Source of the DNA: Planctomycetales bacterium 10988
GTDB taxonomy: Bacteria; Planctomycetota; Planctomycetia; Pirellulales; Pb10988
Assembly (NCBI GenBank): GCA_009664345.1
Contig: CP043547.1
Coordinates: 3,562,709-3,626,708, forward strand
Direction of reading: 5' to 3'
DNA: 64,000 bases
The notes below the pieces were generated by a model. The model was not told the DNA's origin. It did no database searches and saw only the letters and a list, made by a program, of their open reading frames with translations. Made by a program: the position numbers and the translations under genes. This document shows, piece by piece, positions 22,652-51,616 of the stretch (the stretch's first letter is position 1; each line of letters opens with the position of its first letter).

Positions 22652-22686
22652 CAAGTACCGAACACCGAAAACTGAAAACCGAACAC
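22652..22686 (-). repeat. C-rich 7-bp periodic array, right arm of locus 1
   Basis: Five heptads in exact register: CAAGTAC at 22652, then CGAACAC, CGAAAAC, TGAAAAC and CGAACAC starting at 22659, 22666, 22673 and 22680. Read on the minus strand the unit is roughly GTGTTCG. The array ends 16 bp from the stop codon of the convergent sulfatase gene. Confidence 0.8.
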
Positions 22687-22702
22687 AAAAAATAAAATAA
22701 TC

Positions 22703-40094: not shown

Positions 40095-40279
40095 CCTTGT
40101 TGTCCTTCCTTGACCCAGATTCGATGAACTTGCGGGGTAGGGGCAACCCGCCGTATAGAGATAGCATTTCATTCCGCCATAACGGGTATTGTAGCGGAGG
40201 GGGAAAATTTCGAGAAGAGAGGTTGTGGCAGGGAAACCCGCCTGGGCGGGGTTTTCATCGATACCAGGGTGACGATTAG

Positions 40280-40310
40280 GGTTCAGGTTTCAGGATTCGG
40301 GTTTCAGGGG
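40280..40310 (+). repeat. G-rich 7-bp periodic array, left arm of locus 2
   Basis: Four heptads in exact register from 40280: GGTTCAG, GTTTCAG, GATTCGG, GTTTCAG, then GGG. TTC recurs every seven bases. It faces the array at 40443-40495 across 132 bp and has nearly the same unit on the opposite strand. Confidence 0.8.
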
Positions 40311-40442: not shown

Positions 40443-40495
40443 CCTGAACCCTGAACCCTGAACCCTGAACCCTGAACCCTGAACCCTGTTTTTCA
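40443..40495 (-). repeat. perfect heptanucleotide tandem repeat, right arm of locus 2
   Basis: Seven exact copies of CCTGAAC (starts at 40443, 40450, 40457, 40464, 40471, 40478, 40485) followed by CCTG. On the minus strand the unit is GTTCAGG, matching the left-arm unit. The only array of the set without any mismatch between units, which suggests recent expansion or frequent slippage. Confidence 0.95.
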
Positions 40496-41072: not shown

Positions 41073-41208
41073 TCCCGCCTGTTTGGAAGAGGAGTTTCAC
41101 GATTGCCTGTGAACGATCGCTAACTCCAGCCTACCGTTATTGTCTCAAGTTTGAGATTTGGGGACGCGCGCTGCCCCTACCCAATGTGTGAGAAGGAGAC
41201 TCCAGTCA

Positions 41209-42117
41209 ATGAAGTGGAACAAAGTGCTTGGAGCGATGTTCCTCAGCATCTGTCTCGCTAGCCAAGGCTATAGCTTTGACTTGCTCGACAAAATGTTGGG
41301 AATGAAGCACAGTGGCTGTGGTTCGTCCTGCTGTGAGCCCGCTTGTTGCGAGCCAGTTTGTGCCGAACCGACTTGTTGTGAACCCGTTTGCTGCGAACCG
41401 ACTTGCTGCGAACCCGTTTGCTGCGAACCGATCTGCTGTGAACCCGCTTGCTGCGAACCAGTTTGTGCCGAACCCGCTTGCTGCGAACCGGCCTGCTGCG
41501 AACCCGTTTGCTGCGAACCGACCTGCTGTGAACCCGTTTGCTGCGAACCTGCTTGCTGTGAGCCGGTCTGCTGCGAACCTGCTTGCTGCGAACCCGTCTG
41601 CTGCGAACCCTGCGGATGTGACACTGGCTGCAAGAAGAAATTGAATCTGTTCGAAGGCCTCAAAGGTCTTTTCTGCAAAAAGAAAAGCTGCTGCGGTTGT
41701 GAAGAACCTGTCTGCTGCGAACCGGCCTGCTGTGAGCCCGTCTGCTGCGAACCTGCTTGCTGTGAGCCGGTCTGCTGCGAACCCGCTTGCTGCGAACCTG
41801 TCTGCTGCGAACCGGAAATGGTCGGTTGCGATCCTTGCGGTTGCGAACCTTCCTGCAAAAAGAAGCTTTCTTTAGGTGACATGCTCGGCAAACTCTTCGG
41901 CAAGAAGAAAAGCTGCTGCACCAGCTGCACGACCTGCGATAGCTGCACCACCTACAGTGCTGCTCCGGTCTACCACGAAGTAGCTCCCGAGCCAGCTCCG
42001 GCTGCTCCTGCTGCTCCGGAAGCTGACGACGATGCCGCTCCCATGCCTCCGAAAGTCGGCATGATGCGAGATCGTTCGGCTTCTTTCCGAGCCGCTGGCT
42101 ACCGTCAAGCTCGCTAA
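41209..42117 (+). CDS. exported cysteine-rich protein with CCEPX pentapeptide repeats
   Basis: A 302-residue protein starting at ATG 41209 (AAGGAG ten bases ahead). It has a Sec signal (VLGAMFLSICLASQGYS), then three copies of a short Leu/Lys linker (FDLLDKMLGMKHSGC; LNLFEGLKGLFCKKKSCC; LSLGDMLGKLFGKKKSCC). These separate two blocks of CCEP-[VATI] pentads: about 19 units at residues 41-135 (two are CAEP) and about 7 at 168-205. The tail is Ala/Pro-rich and cysteine-free. The repeat is visible in DNA as a 15-bp unit. No family recognised. Planctomycete walls are known to hold cystine-rich protein, so a disulfide-linked envelope protein is plausible; metal binding is an alternative. A terminator follows. 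Confidence 0.88.
   Translation: MKWNKVLGAMFLSICLASQGYSFDLLDKMLGMKHSGCGSSCCEPACCEPVCAEPTCCEPVCCEPTCCEPVCCEPICCEPACCEPVCAEPACCEPACCEPVCCEPTCCEPVCCEPACCEPVCCEPACCEPVCCEPCGCDTGCKKKLNLFEGLKGLFCKKKSCCGCEEPVCCEPACCEPVCCEPACCEPVCCEPACCEPVCCEPEMVGCDPCGCEPSCKKKLSLGDMLGKLFGKKKSCCTSCTTCDSCTTYSAAPVYHEVAPEPAPAAPAAPEADDDAAPMPPKVGMMRDRSASFRAAGYRQAR
41329..41612 (+). repeat. 15-bp coding minisatellite, block 1 (CCEPX)
   Basis: About 19 tandem 15-bp units of the form TGC TGC GAA CCN GNN, with mostly synonymous variation (TGT/TGC, CCC/CCG/CCA) and a V/A/T/I choice at position five. Two units read TGT GCC GAA. A second block of about seven units lies at roughly 41713-41815. Confidence 0.9.
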
Positions 42118-42615: not shown

Positions 42616-45273
42616 ATGTCACCTGAGGAAGCTTCCAAATCGATCCCCGCAGGTGCCGTGCCTCCAGCGGGAGTCGATGCACAGAAAAAAAAGAAGCTTG
42701 GTATCTTTGAGAGCTATCAAGTCGGGACAGGGGGCTATGACGAGATGTTCTCCGCTCCCGGCGTGGTCCGGCCCGCCTATTTGCCTTTTTTCTCCAATGT
42801 CGAGAAATTAGGCTCGGATCGCTTGCGTGCTCGTTGGGAACGTGCTCAACACAATCTGCGAGATATCGGCGTCACGTACACGATTTACAATGACCGGCAA
42901 GAAAATAACCGTCCTTGGGAACTCGATCCGATTCCCTTAATTCTGCACGAGAATGAATGGCGGCATTTAGAAAAAGGGATTCAACAGCGGGCGTTTCTCC
43001 TCAATGCCTTGCTGCACGATCTCTATGGAACGCAGCGAATTCTGCAACAAGCGTTATTGCCGCCGGAGCTGATTTACGCCCATCCGAATTTCCTCCGGGC
43101 TTGCCACAACATCCGTATTCCCGATGATCGCCCGCTTCAGATCTATTCCGTCGATTTAGCCCGGAATCATCAAGGCCAGTGGACCGTCTTTAGCGATCGT
43201 ACCCAAGCCCCGTCCGGAGCAGGATACGCTTTGGAAAACCGGACGATCGTCTCGGACATTCTTTCCGAGGCTTTTCAAGAATGTAAAGTCGAACGCCTGG
43301 CAGCCTATTTCCGTCGTTTGAAGGAAACCCTCTTCCACTTGGCTCGACGCCATCAGGAAAACCCCCGCGTCGTCTTGCTCTCTTCCGGACCCCATAACGA
43401 AACCTATTTCGAACATTTTTATCTTGCTCGCTACCTTGGGTTTACGCTGTCGCAAGGGGCGGACCTGACAGTTCGTGATGGCCAAATTTTCTTGAAAACG
43501 TTGGAAGGCCTGCTGCCGGTCGATGTCATTTTACGTCGGCAAGATGATGATTATTGCGATCCCCTGGAACTCAATCGCTATTCGGTTCTCGGAGTCGCCG
43601 GGCTGACGCAAGCCGTCCGTGAAGGGAATGTTTCAATCGCCAATGCCCTCGGTAGCGGCTGGTGCGAAAGCCCCGCTGTTTTGGCATTTTTGCCGGCAAT
43701 TAGTCGGGCTTTCCTGGGCGAAGAGCTTATCCTTCCCTCGGTGCCGACGTGGTGGTTAGGTGACAAGAAAGCCTTGCAGCATGTCCTTTCCGATTTCGGC
43801 AGGTATGTGATTAAGCCCTCGTTTCCGCATTTTCAACGGCAGAACTTCTTTGTTTCGCAACTTGATTTGAAAGACCGCGAACGCCTCATTCAGCGGATCA
43901 AGGCGAATCCGGCCAGCTACGTCGCCCAGGAGCAACTTCCTCTTTCGACGATGCCGATTTGGAATAGCGGAACTCCGGTCCCTCGAAGAATCTGTTTCCG
44001 AGCCTATGCCACCGGTACCCAACAACGCGAAGGAGAATCGGCGAACTCGACTGGTTACGATCAATACTTTGTCCTCCGAGGCGGTTTGACCCGTGTGACC
44101 AACGGGGCGGATTCGTTGGTTTCCTCCATGCAACAAGGAGGAGGAAGTAAGGACACTTGGATCACCAGCGAGCGACCGCGTCCGCATATTAGCCTTCTTC
44201 CCCCGAACAAACACGATTTGCCCCTGCGACGAAGTGGCATGGCCCTCAGCAGTCGGGTGGCGGACAATATGTTCTGGCTGGGTCGTTATATTGAACGTGT
44301 CGGCGGCTTGACTCGGACCTTGCGATACCTGGCGATGCGATTTAGTTCGGAAGACAACATCAACCTTGCCCCGGAAATTCGCCCGATTCTCTATCACCTT
44401 CGTGAGTTAGGGTATTTGCCAAGCTACGTGCGGCATCCCAATCACAACGAACTGCCGATGCCAGCTCAATGCGAACGGGAACTGCTGCAAATTGTCCATG
44501 GCAATGAACAAGGTCACCTTCGCCGCACCCTCCAACTTGCCCAACAGATTGCCTCGCAAGTCCGCGATACCGTTTCGATCGATGCTTGGCGAATCGCCTA
44601 TCGGCTGACGAGTGATATTCCGGCGCAGCCCACCGGGCCGCACTATCGCTTCGTCGATACCGTTGACATTCTCAACAATCTGATTTTCACCATCGCGGCC
44701 TTTAGTGGAACGAGTACCGAGAGCATGACCCGCGGCCCTGGCTGGGTGTTTTTGGATATCGGCGTGCGGCTTGAACGGGCGTTGCATACTTCGCGGCTGT
44801 TGGCCAACTGCATCGGTGGCAAGACGTTACAAGAAGAAGGCCCCTTGCTGGAAGCCCTCTTGGAAATCGCCGATAGCCGGATGACGTACCGTTCGCGGTA
44901 CCTCAATGCTATGCGACTTGTCCCCGCGATTGACTTGCTGGTGACCGATGAAAGCAACCCTCGTTCGATTGCTTTTCAACTTGTTGAACTCAATTCGCAT
45001 GTGGCCCGACTGCCGCGAGAACGCAACTTGCCCCGACTAGCTCCAGAGGAACGAATCACGCTCGATTTGCAAACCCGCTTTCGCTTGGCGGATGTCGCGA
45101 CGCTTTGCGAATTGAACACTAGTCAACGCTCGACGATTACCCCGATTTCCGGCCAACGTGCCCGATTGGCGGAATTCCTCGATGACATTCCCAAGAAGAT
45201 GGCCGAACTCTCCGACATTCTCAGCCAACGCTACTTCAATCATGCCATCTCCACCCGACACGATTCTTTATGA
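42616..45273 (+). CDS. circularly permuted ATP-grasp and alpha-E fusion protein
   Basis: A 885-residue cytosolic protein fusing two domains that are often separate genes. Residues about 30-490 match the circularly permuted type 2 ATP-grasp family (formerly DUF404/DUF407): GGYDEMFSAPGVVRPAYLPFF, RAFLLNALLHDLYG, AQEQLPLSTMP and an RxxxxxTG-like end. From about 540 (ALSSRVADNMFWLGRYIERV) to 870 it is the all-helical alpha-E domain (formerly DUF403), opening with the family signature. These proteins are predicted amidoligases that form peptide-like bonds using ATP and usually occur with a transglutaminase, as here (next gene). The substrate is unknown. Confidence 0.93.
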   Translation: MSPEEASKSIPAGAVPPAGVDAQKKKKLGIFESYQVGTGGYDEMFSAPGVVRPAYLPFFSNVEKLGSDRLRARWERAQHNLRDIGVTYTIYNDRQENNRPWELDPIPLILHENEWRHLEKGIQQRAFLLNALLHDLYGTQRILQQALLPPELIYAHPNFLRACHNIRIPDDRPLQIYSVDLARNHQGQWTVFSDRTQAPSGAGYALENRTIVSDILSEAFQECKVERLAAYFRRLKETLFHLARRHQENPRVVLLSSGPHNETYFEHFYLARYLGFTLSQGADLTVRDGQIFLKTLEGLLPVDVILRRQDDDYCDPLELNRYSVLGVAGLTQAVREGNVSIANALGSGWCESPAVLAFLPAISRAFLGEELILPSVPTWWLGDKKALQHVLSDFGRYVIKPSFPHFQRQNFFVSQLDLKDRERLIQRIKANPASYVAQEQLPLSTMPIWNSGTPVPRRICFRAYATGTQQREGESANSTGYDQYFVLRGGLTRVTNGADSLVSSMQQGGGSKDTWITSERPRPHISLLPPNKHDLPLRRSGMALSSRVADNMFWLGRYIERVGGLTRTLRYLAMRFSSEDNINLAPEIRPILYHLRELGYLPSYVRHPNHNELPMPAQCERELLQIVHGNEQGHLRRTLQLAQQIASQVRDTVSIDAWRIAYRLTSDIPAQPTGPHYRFVDTVDILNNLIFTIAAFSGTSTESMTRGPGWVFLDIGVRLERALHTSRLLANCIGGKTLQEEGPLLEALLEIADSRMTYRSRYLNAMRLVPAIDLLVTDESNPRSIAFQLVELNSHVARLPRERNLPRLAPEERITLDLQTRFRLADVATLCELNTSQRSTITPISGQRARLAEFLDDIPKKMAELSDILSQRYFNHAISTRHDSL

Positions 45274-45313
45274 GTGGACGGTGGACAGTGGGGTGTGAAG
45301 AGTGAGGATCGGT
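45272..45313 (+). repeat. G-rich 7-bp periodic array, left arm of locus 3
   Basis: Heptads with T-G at positions 4-5: GAGTGGA, CGGTGGA, CAGTGGG, GTGTGAA, GAGTGAG, starting at 45272 with T at 45275, 45282, 45289, 45296, 45303. It begins inside the TGA stop codon of the ATP-grasp gene. The same unit family as the left arm of locus 1; the two share TGAAGAGTGAGG. Confidence 0.8.
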
Positions 45314-47453: not shown

Positions 47454-48617
47454 CTATTGATTTAATAATGTTTGGAGCCAACTTAATTCTTGGGCGATCC
47501 CTTGGGAAAGATGTTCTACTTGGAGCGACTCTGGCAAGACGTTCCAAGCATAGGTTTCTACTTCCACTTGTAAATTTTCTGACTGTTCCGGCATCGTTCG
47601 AAACCAATCGATAATGTCAGGCTGAGTGGTGTTTAAATAATCGAAGGTTGTTAAATAAATCGGGACATGAAAATGCACTCGCCATTCGCTAACGAGACCT
47701 TTGGGGTCTTGCCCTTCAATCGATTGAAAAGCATCAGGAAGATTGTCATAAAATTGCGGGGTCGCATCCGGGTTTTGTTGAATGACCGTTTGGTGTAAAT
47801 AACGAGGCTCTTGAAACTTTCTCAATTGATCAAGAGCGGCAGATCGATCATCACGCGGCAAGTCCGCCAGCCGTAAGCTGACAGCAGAAGAAACCTGAAC
47901 TTTTCCCACGGAAATCCCGGCATTATAGTATTTTTGATAGACTTCCGCTTGCGGTTCGAACATTACTGCGGCATGACAAACATCATGACAAACTCTTAAA
48001 TACCGCAAGATTTTTTCTTCCACTTGGCCGGGGAGTAAATACTCTTGAAAGAACTCGACAATGTCATCACTTCGCTGAAAGACACAACCCGGTTCCGGCT
48101 CTAAACAGAGCGTAATCAAGCGGCCTGTTTCTTTTTCTAATTGTTCGCAAACATCAGCTATTTCTATTAAATAATGAGCGGCCGCTTGTAAGCGGACTTC
48201 TGACACTTTGGGAATGCCCCAAGCAATGGGAAGCGTGGAAATACTTGCGTTCCGCCCAGCGGGTAAAATCTCGTGCAGGATGTTGATTAAATCTTTTGTA
48301 TATCGAAAACGTTCAACTTCATCCCAAGCGGGTAAATAAACTTGATGTTGCACCACTTCTTGATGAAAATCTCCAAACGGAAACCCATTTAAGGTGTAAG
48401 GAATCAAGCCATTTTCACCCAGCCAGTTTCCAAACAGCCCAACCGCTTTCTCTTCAATCAATCTTCGCGCGGTCTGCGCGGAAAGCCACAGCCCGACGCC
48501 CATTGGTTCGCTGGGTTGAAATTGTTCTTTAACAGCAATCGCATACTGAGAAAGGTTCGCTTGCGTTTGCTTTAAATCCGCGCCGGCATGTACGTTGGTG
48601 CAATATCCGAGGAGCAT
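47454..48617 (-). CDS. eboE: EboE-type TIM-barrel metabolite traffic protein
   Basis: A 387-residue protein of the sugar-phosphate-isomerase-like TIM-barrel superfamily, matching EboE: LLGYCTNVHAGADLKQT, VGLWLSAQTARRL, YTLNGFPFGDFHQEVVQHQVYLP, AWDEVERFRYTKDLINILHEILP, LEPEPGCVFQ, CHDVCHAAVMFE. In cyanobacteria and some other bacteria, eboE belongs to the eboA-F cluster linked to export of metabolites such as scytonemin precursors. Here no other ebo gene is adjacent. Its neighbour is a DNA exonuclease. The start codon lies six bases from a 34-bp inverted repeat and no Shine-Dalgarno sequence is visible. Codon use is AT-rich. Confidence 0.85.
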   Translation of the reverse strand: MLLGYCTNVHAGADLKQTQANLSQYAIAVKEQFQPSEPMGVGLWLSAQTARRLIEEKAVGLFGNWLGENGLIPYTLNGFPFGDFHQEVVQHQVYLPAWDEVERFRYTKDLINILHEILPAGRNASISTLPIAWGIPKVSEVRLQAAAHYLIEIADVCEQLEKETGRLITLCLEPEPGCVFQRSDDIVEFFQEYLLPGQVEEKILRYLRVCHDVCHAAVMFEPQAEVYQKYYNAGISVGKVQVSSAVSLRLADLPRDDRSAALDQLRKFQEPRYLHQTVIQQNPDATPQFYDNLPDAFQSIEGQDPKGLVSEWRVHFHVPIYLTTFDYLNTTQPDIIDWFRTMPEQSENLQVEVETYAWNVLPESLQVEHLSQGIAQELSWLQTLLNQ

Positions 48618-48622
48618 GGGTG

Positions 48623-48656
48623 GTGGAGGGGTTAGGGGCCAGGGATTAGGGGTTAG
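48623..48656 (+). repeat. 34-bp inverted repeat with heptads, left arm of locus 4
   Basis: Contains four heptads GGGGTTA, GGGGCCA, GGGATTA, GGGGTTA in exact register, preceded by GTGGA. Its exact reverse complement lies at 48794-48827. It begins six bases upstream of the eboE start codon (minus strand), so it fills the translation-initiation region. Confidence 0.95.
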
Positions 48657-48793
48657 TGCTCTCTTGTATCACTTATTGAATAAATAAGGCAGTGAGCTTG
48701 TAAACTCTATTAACTCCCGATTGATAAGTTTTTGAAACGAACGTTGAAACATCTATTGTACTTTCTCTTTTCTTCGGTGTTAACTCCCAGTCT

Positions 48794-48827
48794 CTAACCC
48801 CTAATCCCTGGCCCCTAACCCCTCCAC
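48794..48827 (-). repeat. 34-bp inverted repeat with heptads, right arm of locus 4
   Basis: Perfect reverse complement of 48623-48656, 137 bp away. It directly adjoins the T-run of the ppdK terminator. The 34-bp arms are identical, unlike the other three loci where the arms only share a rhythm. Confidence 0.95.
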
Positions 48828-48862
48828 AAAAAATGCCCGCTCGGGGTGAACCGGCGGGCATT
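48828..48862 (-). terminator. intrinsic terminator of ppdK
   Basis: On the minus strand AATGCCCGC (48854-48862) pairs with GCGGGCATT (48832-48840) around a 13-base loop, followed by a run of five or six T. It lies 34 bp after the ppdK stop. Confidence 0.88.

Positions 48863-48895: not shown

Positions 48896-51616
<2,721 letters not shown>

What the first reader, a model, noticed from the sequence alone, without database searches (positions are those of the whole stretch)
48617..48862. Locus 4: perfect 34-bp inverted repeat between ppdK terminator and eboE start
Arms at 48623-48656 and 48794-48827 are exact reverse complements containing four heptads each. One adjoins the ppdK terminator, the other lies six bases from the eboE start codon. 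Perfect identity at 34 bp points to recent copying, conversion or inversion of one arm. In mRNA the arms could form a 34-bp stem that would hide the eboE start region.
Basis: partly seen in the sequence, partly recalled or inferred. Interest (0 to 1): 0.7.

Follow-up and report, generated by a model that had tools for sequence, protein, structure and literature searches.

The report
Paired heptad repeats bracketing eboE upstream region
The perfect 34-base mirror-image pair in front of eboE is real, but it is one of many pairs of short seven-base repeats that face each other across the gaps between genes in this bacterium, and the same repeat words turn up in many unrelated bacteria for reasons nobody knows; nothing found here points to a DNA switch.

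Summary
The inverted repeat is confirmed: 34/34 nt, 48623-48656 and 48794-48827, 137-nt spacer. It is the longest perfect inverted repeat (span <=600 nt) in a 2-Mb sample of its genome. It is not a one-off. Each arm is an array of four G-rich heptads (GGGGTTA-GGGGCCA-GGGATTA-GGGGTTA-G). The same arm recurs exactly at a third site and in variants at about 14 more loci, while the spacer is unique. A 2-Mb sample holds 74 heptad arrays, 73 of them intergenic. All 24 neighbouring pairs are convergent, with the G-strand running away from the nearest ORF. The arm motif occurs in at least 118 stretches across many phyla, with 25 convergent partners against 1 divergent and arrays often supplying the stop codon of the gene. 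This geometry was described for Xanthomonas GGGAATC repeats (Rehm 2015), so the locus belongs to a known, unexplained class. Most likely it arose by heptad growth plus copying of arms between sites and between partners. An invertible switch has no support, though reads were unavailable. A strong hairpin is predicted, but it can form only in RNA that reads through the ppdK terminator. The cross-phylum spread of the same heptad words is the interesting part.

The parts
48623..48656 (+). left arm: GTGGA + four heptads GGGGTTA GGGGCCA GGGATTA GGGGTTA + G; C-rich strand is sense, 5 nt before the eboE ATG
48794..48827 (-). right arm: the same 34 nt on the minus strand; G-rich strand is sense, directly after the ppdK terminator
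48657..48793 (.). 137-nt unique spacer, single copy in the genome
48755..48783 (-). sigma-70-like promoter match (TTAACA-17-TACAAT, 10 of 12) reading towards eboE, inside the spacer; consensus match only
48828..48862 (-). ppdK terminator hairpin and U-tract, upstream of the G-rich arm in the mRNA direction
   Evidence: sequence; stem in the fold (the consensus scan did not list it)
47454..48617 (-). eboE (TIM_EboE, NF035939); model reaches residue 3, so the start codon is native
48896..51616 (-). ppdK (pyruvate phosphate dikinase, TIGR01828)
40278..40308 (+). sister locus in the window: left array AGGGTTCAGGTTTCAGG... of a convergent pair
40443..40488 (-). sister locus: right array (GGGTTCA)6, 134 nt from its partner
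45274..45308 (+). degenerate heptad array GTGGACGGTGGACAGTGGGG... starting directly after the stop codon of the 42616-45273 gene
22657..22697 (-). heptad array of type GTGTTCGGTTTTCAG

Best explanation
The 34-bp inverted repeat is a convergent pair of G-rich heptad arrays, one member of a genome-wide class of short (mostly four-unit) heptad arrays that sit at ORF edges with the G-rich strand pointing away from the gene. SHOWN: the arms are repeats found elsewhere, the spacer is unique, neighbouring arrays are only ever convergent, and arrays of this type lie mostly flush with start or stop codons and, in other genomes, often supply the stop codon. INFERRED: arrays are born and copied as units of about 30 nt, change length by single heptads (slippage), and are homogenised with the partner across the spacer (template switching or conversion between inverted copies), which gives the perfect 34 bp here. 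They persist at gene borders because that is where they do no harm. Any hairpin or quadruplex effect on eboE is secondary and would act only on RNA that reads through the ppdK terminator.
For: A third exact 30-32-nt copy lies at 5840428-5840459 with unrelated surroundings, and variants lie at about 14 further loci. The spacer matches nothing else. In a 2-Mb sample: 74 arrays, 1 in a gene; 24 of 24 neighbouring pairs convergent, spacers 93-199 nt; nearer to the ORF on the 5' side in 62 of 74; 31 of 74 arrays lie between convergent genes, which make up 91 of 887 intergenic regions, and 6 of 74 between divergent genes (206 of 887). Detection control: 1 or 0 hits at 10-12 bits in reversed sequence. 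Partner arms are more alike than permuted arms. Two dispersed copies of an A/B-type element differ by 7-nt indels in their arrays. All perfect inverted repeats of 18 nt or more with loops over 30 nt in the sample are heptad pairs. Public genomes: at least 118 stretches in many phyla, convergent 25 against divergent 1 of 100, array letter x (G or T) uniform within an array in 114 of 133, stop codon inside or within 15 nt before the array in 48 of 79. Native C-termini confirmed for GltA, ThiC, MnmA, a methylmalonyl-CoA mutase and Dpp5.
Against: No copying intermediate or close relative with an empty site was available: the nearest held genomes share only the order, and EboE there is 32-55% identical with no adjacent PPDK in the stretch held. 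The copying enzyme is unknown; no Y1 (REP-type) transposase. A purely neutral account does not explain why the same heptad words and order appear in many phyla, or why divergent pairs are nearly absent. The fixed heptad order rests partly on a search pattern that I chose.
Confidence: 0.62

Rival explanations
1. Terminal inverted repeats of a MITE-like mobile element: arm-spacer-arm moves as one piece.
For: True of at least some A/B-type members: the 4197262 and 4242710 elements are reverse-complement copies over 231 bp including an outer hairpin (84%), and a second spacer family has four members. Convergent pairs with similar spacers and avoidance of divergent promoters fit.
Against: For the window's type C the spacers are not shared and the arms often meet coding sequence directly at both ends, leaving no old intergenic DNA. 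No Y1 transposase. No target-site duplication was established.
Confidence: 0.17
2. A selected RNA element: in read-through RNA the arms form a long stem next to the eboE start and block its translation, so that eboE is insulated from ppdK transcription.
For: Strong predicted stem (z -10.6). The terminator precedes the G arm and a promoter-like match lies in the spacer, so only read-through RNA carries both arms.
Against: Many pairs lie between convergent genes, where no start codon can be hidden. The AUG itself lies 5 nt outside the stem. Array length and words vary freely.
Confidence: 0.12
3. Multi-frame stop cassette: period 7 with one stop codon per unit ends translation in all three frames at gene borders.
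For: In public genomes stops fall at the 1st, 2nd or 3rd heptad TAG (13, 8 and 14 genes), as expected if the array sits in random frame and supplies the stop.
Against: The third unit here (GGGGCCA) lacks a stop on both strands; on the ppdK side the array leaves one frame open. A/B-type G-strands carry no stop codons. Xanthomonas GGGAATC has none on either strand.
Confidence: 0.06
4. Invertible DNA switch: the 137 bp flips between the arms.
For: Perfect 34-bp inverted repeat around a promoter-like match.
Against: No recombinase domain in the neighbouring ORFs scanned; arms belong to a dispersed family around unrelated spacers. Reads not available.
Confidence: 0.03

Closest known systems
GGGAATC / GGGGA(C/T)T heptad repeats of Xanthomonas and Nostoc (Rehm et al. 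2015, PMC4692102)
   Different: Other words (GGGGTTA, GGGGCCA, GGGATTA; also GGGTTCA and GTGTTCG types), fixed word order copied between loci, a 34-bp perfect pair, very different host lineages
TAACTGA direct repeats of Beggiatoaceae, Cyanobacteria and Bacteroidetes (MacGregor 2015, PMC4679880)
   Same: Heptads a few nucleotides before start codons; patchy spread over distant phyla
   Different: Different word, single-strand direct repeats with almost no inverted partners reported
Four-unit GGGACCG heptad element of Geobacter metallireducens (PMC2700814)
   Same: About 49 dispersed copies of four tandem heptads
   Different: Also found within genes; not described as convergent pairs in the passages read
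REPINs / REP sequences mobilised by RAYT transposases (PMC3116915 found, not read; features from own knowledge)
   Same: Dispersed convergent pairs of short repeats with a spacer
   Different: No Y1 transposase in the genome; arms are heptad arrays, not small palindromes

Membership tests
G-rich heptad repeat class of Rehm et al. 2015 | tandem heptads, about four units, G-runs able to form a quadruplex | tested here: met
   arm = G4-N3-G4-N3-G3-N3-G4 read directly; formation itself not tested
G-rich heptad repeat class of Rehm et al. 2015 | intergenic, close to the ORF on the 5' side of the G strand whatever the ORF orientation | tested here: met
   73 of 74 intergenic, 62 of 74 nearer to the 5' ORF; type C mostly flush with codons
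G-rich heptad repeat class of Rehm et al. 2015 | convergent inverted pairs | tested here: met
   24 of 24 pairs; 25 against 1 in public genomes
G-rich heptad repeat class of Rehm et al. 2015 | unit GGGAATC or GGGGA(C/T)T | tested here: not met
   units here are GGGGTTA, GGGGCCA, GGGATTA; so same kind, different variant
REPIN / RAYT | Y1 REP-associated transposase in the genome | tested here: not met
   PF01797 absent, (5 of 14 control genomes ring)
MITE | copies share terminal repeats and interior | tested here: not met
   for this locus the spacer is unique; met for some A/B-type elements
MITE | target-site duplication | tested here: inconclusive
   no clear duplication seen at element borders by eye; no empty site available
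Invertible switch | both orientations in reads | not testable with these tools
   no reads
Invertible switch | recombinase gene nearby | tested here: not met
   no recombinase domain in the 17 neighbouring ORFs scanned; others in the window were not scanned
Integron attC site | integron integrase (TIGR02249) above cut-off | tested here: not met
   only sub-threshold tyrosine recombinases

The most novel reading that the evidence does not exclude
A single, so far unnamed process operating across bacterial phyla writes or copies the same heptad words (GKGGTTA-GKGGNNA-GKGATTA) at gene borders, always with the G-strand leaving the gene and always in convergent pairs, either by a shared enzyme or by a horizontally spreading element that consists of the array alone.
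Probability: 0.3. Interest if true: 0.8.

Novelty: new variant of a known kind. Interest (0 to 1): 0.5.

Why it matters
The locus itself is one instance, but following it shows that a repeat class known mainly from Xanthomonas, Nostoc and Beggiatoaceae is far wider, uses the same words in unrelated phyla, obeys a strict orientation rule relative to genes, and often provides the stop codon of the gene beside it. That makes the origin of bacterial heptad repeats, which Rehm et al. (2015) left open, testable by comparing strains.

Tried and rejected
Mean GC skew at intergenic edges gave only a weak signal. RAYT/REPIN: no Y1 transposase. Integron attC: no integrase over the cut-off. Orthologous empty site: EboE relatives share only the order, PPDK was not found beside EboE in the stretches held, no arms seen. 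Rfam: only sub-threshold matches; MIR2118 at 26 bits against a gathering score of 85 merely reflects the long hairpin. The spacers of 4197262 and 4242710 looked like a local inversion at first, but the outer hairpin is reversed too, so the whole element was copied in the other orientation. Quadruplex formation as the conserved property is unlikely, because most arrays in other phyla are GTGGTTA-like without G-triplets. The literature searches found nothing.

Full report
OBSERVATION. The arms 48623-48656 and 48794-48827 are exact reverse complements of 34 nt, with a 137-nt spacer. Weaker similarity extends to 43 nt at 91%. The left arm ends 5 nt from the eboE start codon; the right arm follows the U-tract of the ppdK terminator. 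Gene identities hold: EboE (NF035939, 424 bits) and PPDK (TIGR01828, 1267 bits), both on the minus strand. Reading the mRNA: ppdK stop, terminator, G-rich arm, spacer, C-rich arm, eboE AUG. In a 2-Mb sample of the same genome this is the longest perfect inverted repeat with span up to 600 nt, and every other one of 18 nt or more with a loop above 30 nt is also a pair of heptad arrays.

NOT AN ISOLATED FEATURE. The 25-mer core occurs exactly at a third site (5840434-5840458) and with 2-3 mismatches at four more. A search with the whole intergenic region matched the arms at many loci, while no other stretch matched across the spacer beyond chance-level fragments. Seventeen arm-bearing loci of this type (type C), this one included, were read with their genes: the G-rich strand mostly begins 0-14 nt after a stop codon or before a start codon on the other strand, and often the whole intergenic region is arm-spacer-arm. 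The window's right arm, about 70 nt from the ppdK stop behind the terminator, is an exception. The third exact copy shares about 30-32 nt with this locus and nothing outside, so the array alone was copied.

THE WIDER FAMILY. Period-7 arrays are enriched in this genome (24 in 800 kb against 0 in a Markov control; periods 4, 5, 8, 10, 11 show 0-2). Two profile models of the heptad cores found 74 arrays in 2 Mb after merging; the reversed-sequence control gave 1 or 0 hits at 10-12 bits. Of the 74, 73 lie outside called genes. All 24 neighbouring pairs are convergent, none tandem or divergent, with spacers of 93-199 nt, median 112. In 62 of 74 the ORF on the 5' side of the G strand is the nearer one. 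Arrays are over-represented between convergent genes (31 of 74, against 91 of 887 intergenic regions) and rare between divergent genes (6, against 206 of 887). Genes were called with a simple script, so edges are approximate.

TWO MODES. The A/B types (GGGTTCA, GTGTTCG) usually sit inside a larger composite: a terminator-like hairpin, a linker like TGAACACCAGGGNAACGGATCG, the heptads, a linker like ACTTGGGGTGAA, a spacer with AAAAAGTGCTTTTT-like palindromes, and the mirror image. Some copies moved as a whole: elements at 4197262 and 4242710 are reverse-complement copies over 231 bp at 84% identity, differing by 7-nt indels in the arrays, and a second spacer family has four members. Type C, the window's type, has unshared spacers and mostly meets coding sequence directly.

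PARTNER SIMILARITY. Arms of a pair are more alike than arms of different pairs (mean score 20.3 against 14.8, 0 of 5000 permutations; A/B only 3 of 5000). This fits copying between partners or birth as a pair. It does not require inversion.

OTHER ORGANISMS. Among 246 genomes of the same order, the A/B core occurs in 17 and the type C core in 39; some genomes rich in G-rich period-7 sequence also ring with the reversed control, so those counts are rough. Of 100 arrays with full flanks, 25 have an inverted copy downstream and 1 upstream; with a generic heptad test, 24 and 1 of 93. The variable base x is uniform within the array in 114 of 133. In 48 of 79 cases the stop codon of the upstream ORF lies within the array or within 15 nt before it. 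In-array stops fall on the first, second or third TAG in similar numbers (13, 8, 14). Six of these proteins were scanned; GltA, ThiC, MnmA, a methylmalonyl-CoA mutase and Dpp5 reach the end or nearly the end of the family model, so these are native gene ends (the sixth had no model, and one query had a mistyped first residue, without effect on its C-terminus).

MECHANISM. Best supported: heptad arrays arise at gene borders, vary by whole heptads, are copied as short units between loci, and are homogenised between partners. Shown are the copies, the orientation rule and the placement; the copying process is inferred. The hairpin is strong in prediction (z -10.6), but the ppdK terminator lies before the G arm and a promoter-like match lies in the spacer, so normal transcripts would carry one arm at most. 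The switch idea has no support beyond the repeat itself.

KNOWN KIND. Rehm et al. 2015 (PMC4692102) describe the same geometry in Xanthomonas and Nostoc with other words: four units, within 50 bp of ORFs, overlap with stop codons, convergent pairs (Xanthomonas), avoidance of divergent genes, no known function. MacGregor 2015 (PMC4679880) describes TAACTGA heptads before start codons in Beggiatoaceae, with repeats also in Cyanobacteria and Bacteroidetes. The window locus is a variant of this class, with different words and an unusually perfect pair.

HOST. The genome carries 13 SBP_bac_10 (PF07596) matches, absent from 14 control genomes. From my own knowledge this family is typical of Planctomycetota; that assignment is an inference.

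Noticed in passing
window 40278-40308 and 40443-40488: Second convergent heptad pair in the window, (GGGTTCA)n type, 134 nt apart, with a terminator-like hairpin and CCAGGG linker outside the left arm.
   Followed up: yes
window 45274-45308: Degenerate heptads GTGGACGGTGGACAGTGG start directly after the stop codon of the circularly permuted ATP-grasp gene 42616-45273.
   Followed up: partly
G000:C1 sample 2.0-2.4 and 3.2-4.8 Mb; also inside many heptad-pair spacers: Dispersed palindrome AAAAAGYRCTTTT: 93 copies in 2 Mb against 2 in the reversed sequence; function unknown.
   Followed up: partly
G000:C1:3690063-3692164 (outside the window): 30 regularly spaced copies of GTCTCCGCGGTTAACCCACCGCGGCCCC about 73 nt apart, apparently a CRISPR array.
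   Followed up: no
G000:C1:4370120, 4393859, 4395213, 4480263-4480385: Heptad-pair elements sharing a spacer of about 125 nt at 70-81% identity, one in the opposite orientation: a small dispersed element family.
   Followed up: partly
window 41158-42117: ORF with strong matches to keratin high-sulfur B2 models (PF13885, E 1e-28), probably a low-complexity repeat or a wrong-frame artefact; an ORF overlaps on the other strand.
   Followed up: no
G000:C1:3843628-3843812: Heptad array of 23 GGGTTCA units, far longer than the usual four, with a normal short partner.
   Followed up: no
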